Of a stretch of 64,000 nt of DNA, positions 4,673-45,016 are shown one piece after another; the stretch's first letter is position 1, and every line of letters begins with the position of its first letter. This DNA is from Leptodactylus fallax (Eukaryota; Chordata; Amphibia; Anura; Leptodactylidae), in assembly GCA_947044405.1 (NCBI GenBank), contig CAMRHE010000011.1:7174501-7238500 (forward strand), given 5' to 3'. Made by a program: the position numbers and the translations under genes. The notes beneath the pieces are model-generated. The model was not told where the DNA came from. It saw only the letters and a list, made by a program, of their open reading frames with translations, and ran no database searches.

Positions 4673-6265
4673 CAATGGGTATGGAAAGTATTCAGACCCC
4701 TTTAAATTTTTCACTCTTTGTTTCATTGCTGCCATTTGCTAAAAGCAAAAAAGTTCATTTTATTTCTCATTAATGTACACTCAGCACCCCATTTTGACAG
4801 AAAAAAAAACAGAAATGTAGATATTTTTGCAAATTTATTAAAAGAAAAACTGAAATATCACATGGTCATAAGTATTCAGACCCTTTGCTCAGTATTGAGT
4901 AGAGAAGCACCCTTTTGAGCTAGTACAGCCATCTTCTTGGGAATGATGCAACAAGTTTTTCACATCTGGATTTGGGGATTCTCTGCCATTCTTCCTTGCA
5001 GATCCTCTCCAGTTCCGTCAGGTTGGATGGTGAACATTGGTGGACAGCCATTTTCAGGTCTCTCCAGCGATGCTCAATTGGGTTGAGGTCAGGGCTCAGG
5101 CTGGGCCAGAAACAAATGGTCACAGAGTTGTTTCAAAGCCACTCCTTTGTTATTTTAGCTGTGTGCTTAGGGTCATTGTCTTGTTGGAAGGTGAACCTTC
5201 GGCACAGTCTGAGGTCCAGAGCACTCTGGAAGAGGTTTTCTTCCAGGATATCTCTGTACTTGGCCACATTCATCTTTCCTTCAATTGCAACCAGTTATCC
5301 TGTCCCTGCAGCTGAAAAACACCTCCATAGCATGATGCTGCCACCACCATGTTTCACTGTTGGGATTGTATTGGGCAGGTGATTAGCAGTGTCTGATTTT
5401 CTCCACACATACTGCTTAGAATTAACGGCAAAAAGTTCAATCTTCATCACATCAGACCAGAGAATCTTATTTCTCATAGTCTGGGATTCCTTCATGTGTT
5501 TTTTGGCAAACTCTATGCGGGCTTTCATATGTCTTGCACTGAGGAAAGGATTCCTTCAGGCCACTCTGCCATAAAGCCCCGACTGGTGGAACTTTCTCCC
5601 ATCACCCTACTGCATCTCTGGAGCTCAGCCACAGTGATCTTCTTTATCTCTCTCAACAAGGCTCTTCTCCCACGATTGCTCAGTTTGGCTGGATGGCCAG
5701 GTCTAGGAAGAGTTCTGGTCGTCCCAAAATTCTTCCATTTAAGGATTATGTATGAATCTTATTATGAATCTTGAATGCTGCACAAATTATTTTGTAACCT
5801 TGGCCAGATCTGTGCCTTGCCACAATTCTGTCTCTGAGCTCCTTGGGCAGTTCCTTTGACCTCATGATTCTCATTTGCTCTGACATGCACTGTGAGCTGT
5901 GAGGTCTTATATAGACAGGTTTGTGCCTTTCCTAATCAAGTCCAATCAGTTTAATTAAGCACAGCTGGACTCCAATGAAGGAGTAGAACCATCTCAAGGA
6001 GGATCAGAAGGAAATGGACATCAGTGAGTTAAATATGAGTGTCACAGCAAAGGGTCTGAATACTTATGACCATGTGATTTTTCCATTTTTTTCTTTTTTA
6101 ATAAATTTGTAAAAATATCTACATTTCTGTTTTTTTTCTGTTAAGATGGGTTGCTGAGTGTACATTGATGAGAAATAAAATTAACTTTTTTTCTTTTAGC
6201 AATTGACTGCAATGAAACAAAGAGTGAAAAATTTAAAGGGGTCTGAATACTTTCCGTACCCGCTG
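4673..6265 (-). mobile_element. Tc1/mariner element TcB
   Basis: A 1593-base element with long inverted repeats of about 210 bases that begin CAGCGGGTACGGAAAGTATT on the right end (a variant on the left). Each repeat contains outer and inner copies of 'gtattcagacc', the IR/DR layout of Sleeping Beauty-like Tc1 elements. TA duplications lie at 4671-4672 and 6266-6267. It sits exactly at the centre of the palindrome formed by 4588-4672 and 6266-6350. Confidence 0.95.
4920..5874 (-). pseudogene. Tc1-like transposase (TcB), degenerate
   Basis: The minus-strand reading starts at an ATG at 5874 (MRIMRSKELPKEL) downstream of a TATATAAG box. It carries the helix-turn-helix region in broken frames, then the catalytic core: WSDVMKIEL (first Asp near 5440), [26 protein letters not shown] (second Asp) and [11 protein letters not shown] (Glu). 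It ends near 4920. Several frameshifts and in-frame stops separate the blocks, and the residue after the first catalytic Asp is changed (SDV for SDE). It is a dead DD34E transposase. Family membership is certain; the exact start is tentative. Confidence 0.88.
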
Positions 6266-7040: not shown

Positions 7041-7336
7041 ATGCCAGGTGGAAGGCATATTGAGGCCTCAGAGAAGGGGTCTATTTATCAGAGCGCGTCA
7101 GTGATGCATGCCCAGTGTTACGGCAGCCCTTGCTTCTCTCAGTGCCAGAGAATGCTGAGTCTGGTGCCCCCACCGTGCACAGGTTACAAAAAAAAGAGAT
7201 TGGGGGCACAACATAGAGTAAGTAAAGTGAAGGAAGAAAAGAGACAATATAAATGAGGAAGGGTGAAGATGAGAAACAAAGCAATGAGATATTATGAAAA
7301 AAAGGAAATATGGTACACAAGAGGAATCTACAGGAT

Positions 7337-7399
<63 letters not shown>

Positions 7400-7402
7400 A
7401 AA
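7041..7402 (+). repeat. Foldback arm with (GAAA)n tract
   Basis: This arm starts 'aggcatattgaggcctcaga' and ends in an uninterrupted GAAA tract at 7338-7402. The segment 8605-9005 is its inverted, diverged partner (roughly three quarters identical by eye), so both arms point their tetranucleotide tracts inward. Open frames read from the tract are repeat artefacts. Confidence 0.75.
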
Positions 7403-8457: not shown

Positions 8458-8604
8458 GGAATCCAGTGTCAGCCCCATCTTGACAGTTCAGTTTATTCGC
8501 ATTTCTCTATGTGTGACTCATCATACGTAGGTAACATAATCAAGGGTAGAAATGGCCGAACTGCTTTGTAACAAGCTTGGTTTGTCCCAAATATTCCAAA
8601 TTTC

Positions 8605-8694
<90 letters not shown>

Positions 8695-36680: not shown

Positions 36681-37359
36681 TCAGAAGCAGTCTTCCTGTG
36701 GCCGAGATTCCTGTCGGAGGTCGTCTCTCCCATTTTCTCAACTACTGGCAGGAGAAAATTCGAGACCCAAGGGTCCGGTAGTCTCACAGCGGGTTCTACA
36801 CCATTCCCTATTACTTCATATCTCACAGAAAATAAATGGTTTTAAACGATAAAACTTAACTTTTAATATCTTAAAATAAAAAATACAAAGGACGTCCACT
36901 AGTCTACTAAAAGACAGATCAATGTGGTCTGAGCCTGTCTAGAGTTTACTCAGGGTTTAAATGTTCGACAGTATTCACACTTTCCAACTTTCCATTGGAC
37001 CTAGGGTGTAATTAGATACTTTCACCACCCTTAGACTAAGGTTATAGTATCATGGCTGCATCATACAACAGGTCAGTATTATGTCAGTTGCTCTTAGTGC
37101 TAGGAAAACCCAAACACCTGGTCCCCACACACAATTTGTAAAGCATCACTGACTAGACTCCCACACAGCCATGCTATACCTCCACAACCCTAGTCTGTAG
37201 TATGTACATAAGTCAGTAATCTAGGTACAGGTCACAGTAACTCCATTTCCTGTCATTAAAATATTGTAACCATAAGGGAAACCCCGATATTCTGACCCTT
37301 ATGCTCAATAAACACCTATGTTGCAGCAGAAGATAAACTTGAAGATAAACTTGCTCTAC

Positions 37360-37407
37360 ACGTTTCCCCTGTGTTATCTGTCAGGTTTGTCAGGAGCTAA
37401 TACTAAA
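37360..37407 (-). ncRNA. Hammerhead-like motif, left arm, core mutated
   Basis: The inverted counterpart of the motif at 37531-37577. The core reads CTGACAA, so the conserved G8 is A, and stem III is ACGTGT. Stem II CCTG/CAGG and GAAA are kept. Probably inactive. Confidence 0.5.
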
Positions 37408-37530
37408 ACTTATAAATTGGTCTAAGCTACTCTATACACTGGAGCACACCATCAGTGCTCCAGGAACTGCAGTTGTAACTGCAATTTTGAAATTTTGGCA
37501 GCTTAGACCAATTTATAAGTTTTAGTATTA

Positions 37531-37577
37531 GCTCCTGACGAACCTGACATAGATAACACAGGGGAAACGCGTAGAGC
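37531..37577 (+). ncRNA. Hammerhead ribozyme-like motif with intact core
   Basis: Stem I GCUC (37531-37534) pairs with GAGC (37574-37577). The core CTGACGA (37535-37541) matches the consensus fully. Stem II is CCUG (37543-37546) with CAGG (37559-37562) and a 12-base loop. GAAA is at 37564-37567, stem III is the self-complementary ACGCGT, and A is the cleavage-site base (37573). An A-G mismatch sits at the base of stem II. The outer part of stem I is not well paired. Confidence 0.65.
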
Positions 37578-39564
37578 AAGTTTATCTTCAAGTTTATCTT
37601 CTGCTGCAACATAGGTGTTTATTGAGCATAAGGGTCAGAATATCGGGGTTTCCCTTATGGTTACAATATTTTAATGACAGGAAATGGAGTTACTGTGACC
37701 TGTACCTAGATTACTGACTTATGTACATACTACAGACTAGGGTTGTGGAGCTATAGCATGGCTGTGTGGGAGTCTAGTCAGTGATGCTTTACAAATTGTG
37801 TGTGGGGACCAGGTGTTTGGGTTTTCCTAGCACTAAGAGCAACTGACATAATACTGACCTGTTGCATGATGCAGTCGTGATACCACAACCTTAGTCTAAG
37901 GGTGGTGAAAGTATCTAATTACACCCTAGGTCCAATGGAAAGTTGGAGAGTGTGAATACTGTCTAACATTTAAACCCTGAATAAACTCTGAATAGACAGG
38001 CACAGACCACATTGATCTGTCTTTTAGTAGACTAGTGGACGTCCTTTGTATTTTTTATTTTAAGATATTAAAAGTTAAGTTTTATCGTTTGAAACCATTT
38101 ATTTTCTGTGAGATACCAAGGGTCCGGTAGGTAATCCAAAGACGATATGCAATCGAGTTCCTCCATCCTCCTCAGGATCGGTTTGTGTTAACTCGCAGCC
38201 TCCCTACAATGCAGCAGACTACACTTGAATGCTCCGTCCATGTGTACATTCACAGTGGAGCCCTGGTGGAAGTCCCTTCTCTAGAAGAAGGTTCCGGTGT
38301 CTATTCTCCCGTCTTCCTGGTGCCAAAACCGGCAGACAAGTGGAGAATGATCATAGACTTAAGCTACCTCAACCGCTTCATCAAAGAAGCGCTTCCGGAT
38401 GGAAACCATAAAGTCTGTCACCACCTTTCTCCTCCAAGGCGATGTTTTTTTGTGACTTTGGATATAAAGATGCCTATTTGCATATTCCTATTTACCTCCA
38501 CACAGAAGGTTTTTCTAAGGATTTCCGTAGTAGTTTCCGGCCACATGAAGCACTTTCAATTCACAGCACTACCCTTCGGGATCTCCTCTGCTCCCCACAC
38601 CTTTACAAAGGTAGTGGCCCCCATAACGGCCGCCCTCAAGCTTCAGGGGATATTCTTGGTGCCTTATTTAGACGACTGGTTGGTAAAGGCCCAGTCAGAG
38701 TCTGTTCTGCTCCAGTACCTACAGACAGCCGTTTCCCTGCTTTAGAGTCTGGGATGGCTTATAAACTGGGAGAAGTCAAAAACGATCCCTTCAACCCGAA
38801 GGAAGTTCCTCCGCTACTTCCTAGATTCAGTCTGCCTACAAATCTCCTTGACACCAGCAAGGAAGGAGAAGCTGGTCGTGGCAGTCCGGCACCTCTTCAA
38901 AAAGCCGATAGCCTCCATCAGAACATTGATGAAGATCCTGGGCTTGATGTCTTCCTCAGTGGAGGCAGTCCCATGGGCCTTATGGCACTTACGTTCCCTA
39001 CAGAGAGAATTATTAGAGGCTTGGGATCGCACCCTTCTTACACTCAGCAAGAAGATTCGACTCTCCCCCAGGACCCGTTTTTCCCTCAAGTGGTGGTTAC
39101 ACCTGAAAGACGGAAGGTCCACGGTCCAACCTCCTTGGACCCTGTTGACTACAGATGCATTCCTCACGGGATGGGGAGCCCATATGGATGAAAACTACAT
39201 AAAGGGAGTCTGGAGCACTCCAGAAAGAAGGACCTCGTCCAACTGGAAGGAGCTCAGAGCTGTATACAGTCCCTGACAGAAGTTCTCTCGCTTATCCATG
39301 TTGTGGAATCAAAAGCTTATAACCTGACTTTAAATTCATCCATTGGTTTTAGAAATGACTCATATGAAAGCTGAAACCCTCCCAAATGATTTTTTGGTTA
39401 AGAAAATAAATTGGCTTCACTGCTGAAATATTCATCATTTAATGAACACTGAAAGGTCAGATTTTGGCAAGACAAAAGTTTTGTCGCCTTGTCATATAAT
39501 GCACCCAATCCTAGTTTAAAGCCTCACCTGTGCTCACTAATTGATCGGTTAATTAGTGGGTGTG

Positions 39565-39573
39565 TATAAAAAG
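39565..39573 (+). promoter_or_regulatory. TATA box of TcH
   Basis: TATAAAAAG 52 bases upstream of the transposase ATG. Confidence 0.55.
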
Positions 39574-39624
39574 AACTCCAGCACCCCAGACCTTCACTTG
39601 AACTGCAACTTCACCTCTAACAAC

Positions 39625-40610
39625 ATGCCAAAAATCAACCCTGCGACCAAAGCCTTGATTATCAAGAGGCTGAAGACCAGATGCACCTTTAATGTGTCTC
39701 TGCGTCAAGTACAAAGAATTAAAAAAAAAGATCTCAACAGACTGGAGATGTTTTTGACAAGCCCAGGTCCGGCAGACCCCGCAAGACAACTGCTCAGGAG
39801 GAACGTTTGTTGGTTAGAAAATCAAAAGCCAACCCCTCTTCCACTGCAGCAGAGCTCCAACAGGCCTGGTCACCTCAAGTCCCTGTGTCAACTAGAACAG
39901 TTTGTAGGATTCTGTCTCGAAATGGCCTCCATGGTCGAATCAGTGCCCAGAAGCCAGCACTAAACAAAAGGCAATTAAAAAAATATGTGGCATTTTCTAA
40001 GGCCCACAGCCTGCTAAACGGATGGATGCTGGAAAAGTGGCAGAAGGTGGATTTCTCAGATGAATCTTCAGTTGAATTAAACCACAGCCACCGCAAATAC
40101 TGCAGGAGACCTACTGGAACCCGTATGGATCCAAGATACACCCAGAAAACAGTTAAATTTGGTGGTGGAAAGATCATGGTCTTGGGTTACATTCAGTATG
40201 GGGGTGTGCGAAACATTTGCAAGGTGGAAGGCAATATCAATAGCCTAAAATATCAAGAAGTATTAGCTTCCTCTTACATTCCCAATCATAAAAGGGGTCA
40301 AATTTTGCAGCAGGATGGTGCTCCATCTCATACATCCATCTCTACATTAAAGTTCCTCAAGGCAAAGAAGATCAAGGTGCTCCAGGATTGGCCAGCCCAG
40401 TCACCAGACATGAACATCATTGAACATGTTTGGGGTAGGATGAAAGAGGAAGCTTGGCAGACAAAACCAAAGAATCTTGATGAACTCTGGGAGGCATGTA
40501 AGACTGCATTCTTTGCTATTCCTGATGACTTCATCAATAAATTGTATGAATCATTGTTGAAACGCATGGATGCAGTCCTTCAAGCTCATGGAAGTCACAC
40601 ACAATATTAA
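39625..40610 (+). pseudogene. Tc1-like transposase (TcH), single homopolymer frameshift, DD35E
   Basis: The ATG at 39625 gives MPKINPATKALIIKRL and a helix-turn-helix up to SLRQVQRI. A run of nine A (39721-39729) is one base out of frame. The downstream frame is open from there to the stop at 40610 and includes the AT-hook GRPRK, the second DNA-binding subdomain (STAAELQQAW, STRTVCRILSRNGL), VDFSDESSVEL (first Asp), QQDGAPSHTS (second Asp) and SPDMNIIEHVW (Glu). Thirty-five residues separate the second Asp from the Glu, so it is DD35E. All catalytic residues are present. The frameshift could be real or a sequencing error in the A run. It is young: ends, triad and length (about 328 residues) are preserved. 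Confidence 0.93.
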
Positions 40611-40928
40611 ATATGGCTCTAATAGCACCACAACTTCATTCACCAATGTTAGGAAACATATCTTTGTCTTTGAACAGAATTAATGGTTTGATGTTCACAT
40701 TACTTTGTGTGCGACAAAACTTTTGTCTTGCCAAAATCTGACCTTTCTGTGTTCATTAAATGATTTTTTCAGCAGTGAAGCCAATTTATTTTCTTAACCA
40801 AAAAATCATTTGGGAGGGTTTCAGCTTTCATATGAGTCATTTCTAAAACCAATGGATGAATTTAGTCAGGTTATAAGCTTTTGATTCCACAACATGGATA
40901 AGCGACAGAACTTCTGTCAGGGACTGTA

Positions 40929-41543: not shown

Positions 41544-42543
41544 GTGCCAGGATCTCTGGAGATTCAACCTGACAGCCTGGAGGTTGAGCAGTCCCTACAG
41601 CAGGATAGAGGACTGTTAGAGGCCGTCCTGAAGACCCTTTCTTCTGCAAGAGCAGACTCTGCCAATAAGAGCTACCAAAGGACAACCAAGATTTTCATGG
41701 AGTGGTGCTCCAAGAAGGGTAATAATAATCTAGAACCTTCTACCGCTGATATTTTAAATTTTCTTCAGGACGGTTGGGATAAGGGCCTTGCCCCTGCCAC
41801 TTTGAAAGTGCAGATTGTGGCCCTCTCCACTCATTTGAACAGACGTCTGTCTCAGAATCCTCTGGTTGCAAGGTTCCTTAAAGGGGCAATGAGGCTAAAG
41901 CCTCGGTATCATCTCCAGTTCCCCAGTGGGACCTTGCGGTAGTCCTTGCAGGCCTGTGCGGTCCTCCATTTGAACCCTTGGAGACTACGGAGCTAAAATA
42001 TTTTGCCTACAAAACCACTTTTTTGCTGGCTATTATATCTGCCAAAAGAGTAGGGGAACCCCAGGCCCTCTCTTCTAGAGAACCGTACATTTTGTCTTTG
42101 CAGATTGGGTGCACCTTAGGTTTTCGCCTGGGTTTAACCCTAAGGTCCCCTCATGCTATAATAGCAATCAGCTAATTTCGTTACTTGTGTTTTTCCCCAC
42201 TCCAACCTCTGAAGAGGAAGGAAAGCTCCACACCTTAGATGTGGTAAGGTGTCTGTGGATTTACCTATCCCGCACTTAACTGCTTAGGAAGGCCGAAAAC
42301 CTACTAATCAACATGTAGGGTAAAAACAAAGGCCTCAAGGCTTCCAAGCCTACTCTATCCACATGGATCAAGGAGACAATTCGGTCTTCCTTTTTCATTT
42401 AGGAGTTACTCCCTCCAGTTTTTCTACGGCCACTCGACCAGGGCTGTGTCGACTTGGGCTGAGTATCGGTCCTTACCATTGGACCAGATTTGTGCGGCTG
42501 CATCATGGTCATCTCAGTTGACCTTTGTTAAACATTATCATTA
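41544..42543 (+). pseudogene. DIRS tyrosine recombinase
   Basis: Would integrate the circular DNA copy. The N-terminal SAM-like part: SANKSYQRTTKIFMEWC, LNFLQDGWDKGLAPATLK. Catalytic part in other frames: ISAKRVGEPQAL (first catalytic Arg), HSTRAVSTWAEYRS (His-x2-Arg box, near 42432) and FVKHYH with the nucleophilic Tyr at 42535-42537, stop at 42541-42543. The Arg, His, Arg and Tyr are all still recognisable but at least three frameshifts separate them. Position at the 3' end, before the internal complementary region, is the DIRS arrangement. Confidence 0.88.

Positions 42544-42950: not shown

Positions 42951-45016
<2,066 letters not shown>

What the first reader, a model, noticed from the sequence alone, without database searches (positions are those of the whole stretch)
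36782..38115. Large palindromic retro-insertion with a hammerhead-like motif in each arm
About 600-base near-perfect arms, no protein, and an exact 15-base target duplication. A hammerhead-like motif with a fully conserved core lies in the right arm (37531-37577), with a mutated partner in the left. A duplication of this length is unlike DNA transposons of this window and suggests RNA-mediated insertion. It could be a Penelope-like derivative or a retrozyme-like non-autonomous element that integrates as inverted copies.
Basis: partly seen in the sequence, partly recalled or inferred. Interest (0 to 1): 0.85.

Follow-up and report, generated by a model that had tools for sequence, protein, structure and literature searches.

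The report
Penelope-like retroelement inserted as a palindrome
The palindrome is a protein-less copy of the end of a Penelope-like retroelement, probably of a frog, apparently made by copying its RNA onto both cut ends of the target DNA; its sister copies give clues to how such elements insert.

Summary
In detail: a 1334-bp insertion (36782-38115) with inverted arms of 610/616 bp (97% alike), an exact 15-bp target duplication and one hammerhead motif (0.007 expected per window). It is not a separate retrozyme family. The arm is the pseudo-LTR of a Penelope-like element (PLE) in the same 2.5-Gb genome: locus L031 has pseudo-LTR, frames with RT and GIY-YIG-like domains, pseudo-LTR. The window copy is two pseudo-LTRs head to head, with the PLE 'tail' (37 nt) on one arm. 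Sister copies suggest the mechanism. In 20 of 20 insertions with both outer ends seen, one arm starts at the tail site and the other about 37 nt upstream. Target duplications are 14-16 bp in 15 of 20. Of 36 arm 5' ends within or near the pseudo-LTR, 16 lie in an 8-nt window 30 nt after a TATA box; none lies at the ribozyme cut. The window's two arms carry different haplotypes, both known from other insertions, so two RNA templates are likely. Best model: two-sided target-primed reverse transcription, one cDNA per target strand. Inverted pseudo-LTRs, tails and ribozymes are known in PLEs; the one-of-each rule, two-template evidence and AC-N14-GT target preference may be new, from one genome and a partial sample.

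The parts
36767..36781 (.). Target duplication, left copy (15 bp)
   Evidence: Exact repeat of 38116-38130
36782..36818 (-). 37-nt 'tail': outer end of the left arm, from RT start site B; corresponds to the beginning of the first PLE frame in L031
   Evidence: Absent from the right arm; present next to the pseudo-LTR in other copies and in frame 3775-4566 of L031
36819..37428 (-). Left arm: pseudo-LTR positions 72-687, antisense
37044..37065 (-). Five-site haplotype TCATT of the left arm (pseudo-LTR positions 437, 447, 449, 456, 458)
   Evidence: Shared in full only with the left arm of C58:5619188 among 60 arms
37353..37397 (-). Hammerhead motif of the left arm, one core change
37426..37428 (.). 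Inner junction; GCT fits both arms (3-nt overlap); right arm 5' end at the inferred RNA 5' end
37429..37499 (+). Pseudo-LTR positions 1-71, present in the right arm only; two stable hairpins (z-score -3.9)
37500..38115 (+). Right arm: pseudo-LTR positions 72-687, sense; ends at RT start site A
37531..37577 (+). Hammerhead motif, predicted cut after 37573 (pseudo-LTR 145/146)
37865..37886 (+). Five-site haplotype CTGCC of the right arm (common form)
38116..38130 (.). Target duplication, right copy (15 bp)

Best explanation
The insertion is a head-to-head pair of pseudo-LTRs of an endonuclease-type Penelope-like element. SHOWN from sequence: the arm is the terminal repeat of the PLE unit; in resolved sister insertions one arm starts at site B (tail) and the other at site A about 37 nt upstream; target duplications are mostly 14-16 bp; arm 5' ends pile up 30 nt after TATAAA; the two arms of this and several other insertions differ in haplotype. 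INFERRED: the element's RT-endonuclease, probably a dimer, cuts both target strands at a two-fold AC-N14-GT-like site, leaving 14-16 nt 3' overhangs; each 3' end primes one cDNA on sense RNA, one from site B and one from site A. B is probably used first. Here both templates gave pseudo-LTR sequence only: the right cDNA ran off at the RNA 5' end, the left stopped about 74 nt short, and the two ends were joined over GCT. The two templates were probably different RNA molecules. The hammerhead is an inherited part of the 5' untranslated region and did not define the ends.
For: PLE identity: L031 holds arm(-), arm(+), frames of 263 and 799 aa, arm(+); the 799-aa product aligns with proteins that pass Pfam cut-offs for RVT_1 and GIY-YIG, keeping YIDD and the VVY, YMG, R, H, E, N positions. 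One A and one B start in 20 of 20 resolved pairs, 16 of them found by a query without the tail. TSD lengths. 16 of 36 arm 5' ends at positions -5 to 0, none within 3 nt of the ribozyme cut. AC before the duplication in 12 of 19, GT after it in 7 of 19. Window arms: all 35 other arms compared are closer to the right arm than its own partner is; left haplotype TCATT recurs in full only in the left arm of C58:5619188 while both right arms have CTGCC. Inner overlaps of 4 nt or more in 4 of 22 junctions, 1.8% expected. Published: an Anolis PLE protein cuts and extends both strands, with two RT start sites that bound the tail (PMC11167929 main text).
Against: Only 40 of 886 and 40 of 1003 candidates were scored; 11 of 44 pieces were unresolved. 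14 pieces have one arm only, so two cDNAs are not universal. In vitro the Anolis enzyme showed no difference in start site between strands. Arms of one insertion agree more than shuffled pairs (0.857 against 0.663, 0 of 5000 shuffles), and some pairs share private alleles, so one source, template switching or arm-to-arm conversion also plays a part. 11 of 22 junctions show a gap or filler against the reference used. The query protein itself scores below Pfam's RVT_1 cut-off and has no GIY-YIG hit. No empty site, RNA or enzyme data.
Confidence: 0.75

Rival explanations
1. Self-priming: an antisense PLE RNA folds back at its 3' end, primes its own copying, and the hairpin cDNA is inserted (suggested for rotifer Penelope in PMC3846280).
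For: Head-to-head palindromes with hairpins at the inner junction, as here: the 71 nt of 37429-37499 fold stably; the paper favours this reading (Discussion).
Against: Predicts the same outer end and the same haplotype in both arms; 20 of 20 pairs differ in outer end and the window arms differ in haplotype. Arm lengths in some pairs differ by more than 1 kb, e.g. C43, C58, C175. 5' ends lie at a sense-strand promoter's expected start.
Confidence: 0.1
2. One RNA template for both arms; the arm differences came later by mutation and by gene conversion from other copies.
For: Pairs agree more than shuffled pairs; C63 has no difference in 621 columns; both arms of C58 and C300 share alleles seen nowhere else in the sample; several discordant sites are CpG.
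Against: The window left arm and the C58 left arm, at different places, share all five sites of TCATT; 8 of 17 pairs have three or more differences of which both alleles occur in at least two other insertions.
Confidence: 0.22
3. A non-autonomous retrozyme-like family moved through circular RNA made by the hammerhead.
For: Hammerhead core kept in 49 of 52 arms that span it; pseudo-LTR-only copies exist; published metazoan retrozymes can have 15-bp TSDs (PMC4918200 passages).
Against: The same repeat ends copies with the PLE frames; no arm 5' end lies within 3 nt of the cut; no unit bounded by two cuts was seen in the fetched loci.
Confidence: 0.04
4. A foldback or MITE-type DNA transposon that carries a chance hammerhead.
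For: Long inverted arms and no protein.
Against: Ends differ between arms, arm lengths vary, TSD length varies from 7 to 18 bp, and the repeat belongs to a PLE.
Confidence: 0.01

Closest known systems
Endonuclease-containing Penelope elements of Adineta vaga (PMC3846280; passages and Discussion seen)
   Same: pLTR-ORF-pLTR plus an adjacent inverted pLTR, short tail (31 bp) at the 3' end of one inverted pLTR, TSD, head-to-head arrangement, palindrome at the inner junction
   Different: TSDs named there are 8-10 bp, here mostly 14-16; pLTR 181-218 bp there, about 687 here; two pLTRs without any coding part in the window
Poseidon-type PLE of Anolis carolinensis, PAc (PMC11167929; main text seen)
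   Same: RT plus GIY-YIG, hammerhead, cuts and extends both strands, two internal RT start sites that bound the tail, ribozyme not needed for insertion in vitro
   Different: Hammerhead at the pLTR-ORF junction there, about 540 nt upstream of site A here; AT-rich ATT target there, AC-N14-GT-like here; no start-site difference between strands there, strict one of each here
Metazoan non-LTR retrozymes (PMC7761336, PMC4918200; passages seen)
   Same: Type I hammerhead, no protein, possible 15-bp TSD
   Different: No tandem monomers bounded by ribozyme cuts; the repeat is part of an autonomous-type PLE
L1 twin priming (recalled, no call)
   Same: The second target strand primes a second cDNA
   Different: L1 gives a 5' inversion of two parts of one RNA; here both cDNAs start at nearly the same place and give a palindrome

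Membership tests
Penelope-like elements, endonuclease type | RT of the PLE kind in the element | tested here: met
   799-aa frame of L031: relatives P0059, P0110, P0103, P0001 pass the RVT_1 cut-off; YIDD kept. The frame's own RVT_1 score, 17.5, is below the cut-off 29.6
Penelope-like elements, endonuclease type | GIY-YIG endonuclease | tested here: met
   By alignment to P0059 and P0110, which pass the Pfam GIY-YIG cut-off, with motif positions kept; no direct Pfam hit for the frame itself
Penelope-like elements, endonuclease type | Pseudo-LTRs in direct tandem and inverted arrangement | tested here: met
   L031 and the pairs
Penelope-like elements, endonuclease type | Tail of 30-40 bp between two RT start sites | tested here: met
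   37 nt, on one arm in 20 of 20 pairs
Penelope-like elements, endonuclease type | Hammerhead motif in the pseudo-LTR | tested here: met
   Core intact in 49 of 52 arms, core with both 4-bp stems in 43 of 52; cleavage itself not testable
Penelope-like elements, endonuclease type | Enzyme activity, RT start and target cleavage | not testable with these tools
   Needs protein and RNA
Retrozyme (metazoan) | Unit bounded by hammerhead cuts, circular RNA | tested here: not met
   Ends do not fall at the cut; circular RNA not testable
DNA transposon (foldback or MITE) | Fixed termini with fixed short duplication | tested here: not met
   Variable duplications, 7-18 bp, and unequal ends

The most novel reading that the evidence does not exclude
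This PLE inserts by an asymmetric two-sided mechanism. A dimeric enzyme recognises a two-fold AC-N14-GT site, cuts both strands leaving 14-16 nt 3' overhangs, and primes one cDNA on each strand: one protomer starts after the first CTGTGAGA of the RNA and the other after the second, 37 nt downstream, often on two different RNA molecules. Palindromes are then a normal product, and pseudo-LTR-only palindromes like this one arise when an RNA that begins at the pseudo-LTR's own promoter, and not read-through tandem RNA, is the template.
Probability: 0.55. Interest if true: 0.65.

Novelty: new member of a known kind. Interest (0 to 1): 0.5.

Why it matters
How Penelope-like elements insert is unsettled: PMC3846280 could not decide between self-priming on antisense RNA and sense templates, and PMC11167929 leaves the steps after first priming to be validated. 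This family has many similar copies whose start sites, target site, templates and joints can be read from the scars. It yields rules that can be tested: one start site per strand, an AC-N14-GT target, template 5' ends at the transcription start and not at the ribozyme cut, and arms from two RNAs.

Tried and rejected
Rfam at gathering threshold gave nothing; the two miRNA-family matches at relaxed threshold I take to reflect the hairpin. Folding the isolated motif did not give the full hammerhead. The phage collection had no match. A cluster of five transitions between the arms first suggested RNA editing; I dropped this when the left haplotype turned up in full in an independent insertion. A second ribozyme nearer the start sites was sought in the unit and not found. 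No PDB chain matched the 799-aa frame up to E = 1. An empty site in other copies of the target element was sought, but the genome search did not complete, so the target duplication rests on sequence alone. A third search for more copies also did not complete.

Rows dropped: C1347 (minisatellite) from all arm counts; blocks under 94% identity or about 100 nt or less; five blocks (fragments in C137, C357, C397) and 27 arms that run past position -160; the 7-bp duplication of C152:3141500. Of 44 pieces 11 were left unresolved: C11:13473632, C33, C41, C92, C140, C357, C379, C408, C514, C570, C1347. L075 and L076 were also unresolved. Of 14 single-arm pieces 13 have the tail, but the second query contained the tail; of the 8 found by the first query 7 have it (counted by hand). 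'Single' means that no second arm reached the BLAST threshold; a very short one may have been missed.

Full report
Observation. The window holds a 1334-bp insertion, 36782-38115, between exact 15-bp direct repeats. Its arms, 36819-37428 and 37500-38115, are inverted copies, 96.9% identical over 616 columns. The left arm has 37 further bases at its outer end. A hammerhead motif with complete core lies at 37531-37577; a scan that allows a mismatched first pair in stem II finds it once in the window and 0.0067 times per simulated window. The left partner has one core change. No Rfam family reaches its gathering score.

Surroundings. The insertion sits between an upstream frame and an RT frame (38185-38745) that passes the RVT_1 cut-off; a frame at 41544-41942 has a sub-threshold match to a phage-integrase N-terminal domain. 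That this host element is DIRS-like is my recall of such elements with these weak hints, not a tested assignment. A Tc1/mariner-type transposase frame (39807-40610; DDE_3 and Tc3-type HTH above cut-off) with 105-nt terminal inverted repeats at 39331-39435 and 40760-40864 is nested in the same region.

Identity. A search of the window's own genome (2.50 Gb, 2215 contigs) with 37450-38115 listed 47 matches; 40 of 886 candidates were scored. Locus L031 (C227:1903000-1912500) contains arm(-), arm(+), frames of 263 and 799 aa, and arm(+): the arm is the terminal repeat of a 4824-nt tandem unit. The 799-aa product matches 593 proteins among 7988 scored candidates; of the 120 listed, those named are amphibian except one fish, so the host is probably a frog. 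The frame aligns with proteins that pass Pfam's cut-offs for RVT_1 and GIY-YIG, with YIDD, the VVY and YMG motifs and the R, H, E and N positions kept; by itself it scores below the RVT_1 cut-off and has no GIY-YIG hit. The tail lies at the beginning of the first frame as listed, with a GTG start. This is the anatomy described for endonuclease-type Penelope-like elements: pLTR-ORF-pLTR, an inverted pLTR, and a 31-bp tail at the 3' end of one inverted pLTR (PMC3846280, passages).

Family. Overlapping loci were merged into 44 pieces: 19 with both outer ends of a head-to-head insertion, 14 with one arm, 11 unresolved. L074 adds a twentieth pair. In 20 of 20 pairs one arm ends near position 687 (site A, within about 9 nt) and the other about 37 nt further on (site B, tail). 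Sixteen of these pairs were found by the query without the tail, four (C68, C98, C397, C618) only by the query with it. Both sites follow the same 8 letters, CTGTGAGA. Target duplications are 7, 10, 12, 13, 14 (8 times), 15 (4), 16 (3) and 18 bp; one of the 14-bp ones has a mismatch. With site B turned to the left, 12 of 19 duplications are preceded by AC (binomial 2e-11 on local composition), 12 of 19 are followed by G and 7 by GT (7e-5). The limits of the duplications were set by longest match before this motif was noticed, but the motif itself was picked after seeing the list, so the probabilities are descriptive.

Inner ends. Of 36 arm 5' ends between positions -159 and 687, 16 lie at -5 to 0, at or beside GGCT, which starts 30 nt after TATAAA; none lies within 3 nt of the predicted ribozyme cut, the nearest being at 153. 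I read this as run-off at the RNA 5' end. 27 further arms run past this place, so read-through RNA is copied too. Inner junctions show overlaps of 8, 5, 5 and 4 nt in 4 of 22 cases (1.8% of random pairs reach 4) and a gap or filler in 11 of 22 against the single reference used, which overstates gaps where copies differ from it.

Templates. Among 15 pairs the arms of one insertion agree at diagnostic sites more often than shuffled pairs (0.857 against 0.663, 0 of 5000), and C63 (I39 there) has no difference in 621 columns. Others are discordant. All 35 other arms compared are closer to the window's right arm than its left partner is. The window arms differ at positions 437, 447, 449, 456 and 458 (TCATT left, CTGCC right). 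Among 60 arms with these sites only the window left arm and the left arm of C58:5619188 have TCATT, and both right arms have the common form. In 17 pairs the numbers of differences of which both alleles occur in at least two other insertions are: C58 8, window 5, C397 5, C227 4, C300 4, C307 3, C111 3, C68 3, two pairs 2, three pairs 1, four pairs 0. Some of these sites are CpG, and C58 and C300 also share private alleles between their arms, so a common source with template switching, or arm-to-arm conversion, is part of the picture.

Mechanism. The scars fit two-sided target-primed reverse transcription: staggered cuts, two 3' overhangs, each priming one cDNA on sense RNA, one at site A and one at site B, then end joining. 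PMC11167929 reports that an Anolis PLE protein cuts and extends both strands, is predicted to form a dimer, and starts at two internal sites that bound the tail; it saw no start-site difference between strands, which is against a simple strand rule. Self-priming on antisense RNA (PMC3846280, Discussion) predicts equal outer ends and one haplotype per insertion. That site B is used first is my inference from 7 of 8 first-query single-arm copies bearing the tail.

The ribozyme. Of 52 arms that span the motif (39 pieces) 49 keep CTGANGA and GAAA, 43 keep also both 4-bp stems and 25 are identical to the window's right arm over 53 nt; the copies are young and alike, so this is not proof of selection. 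It is the only such motif found in the unit. It lies about 540 nt upstream of site A, unlike in Anolis, and leaves no trace in the inserted ends; PMC11167929 found it unnecessary for insertion in vitro.

Novelty. Inverted pLTRs, tails, duplications and hammerheads are known in PLEs. Searches on PLE with inverted, head-to-head, twin priming, template switching, tail and target-site terms listed no paper whose title or abstract start reports the one-of-each rule, two templates per insertion or this target motif. Three relevant papers (PMC4209133, PMC5785218, PMC8557442) are not held, and most listed papers were not opened, so this is no proof of absence. The window copy itself is an ordinary dead copy; the interest lies in what the family shows.

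Noticed in passing
39331-40864: Tc1/mariner-type element with 105-nt terminal inverted repeats (98% complementary) and a transposase frame 39807-40610, nested in the same host element as the palindrome.
   Followed up: partly
43790-44839: Second Tc1/mariner-type transposase frame, 349 aa, with DDE_3 and Tc3-type HTH matches above cut-off.
   Followed up: partly
378-1386: Several overlapping imperfect inverted repeats (73-86% complementary).
   Followed up: no
7334-7402 and 8601-8689: Inverted repeat that matches in several registers 4-5 bases apart, as a short tandem repeat would.
   Followed up: no
L069 (C1347:74571-77753), 1-423: A 28-nt minisatellite made of the first bases of the PLE pseudo-LTR (unit positions 4826-4856), beside a pseudo-LTR copy.
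   Followed up: no
L076, about 956-960: A PLE copy that lacks the stretch from the inferred transcription start to pseudo-LTR position about 160, as if the copying had jumped from one RNA to a read-through RNA.
   Followed up: no
L031 3775-3819: Both RT start sites follow the same 8 letters CTGTGAGA, 37 nt apart; perhaps one binding site per protomer.
   Followed up: partly
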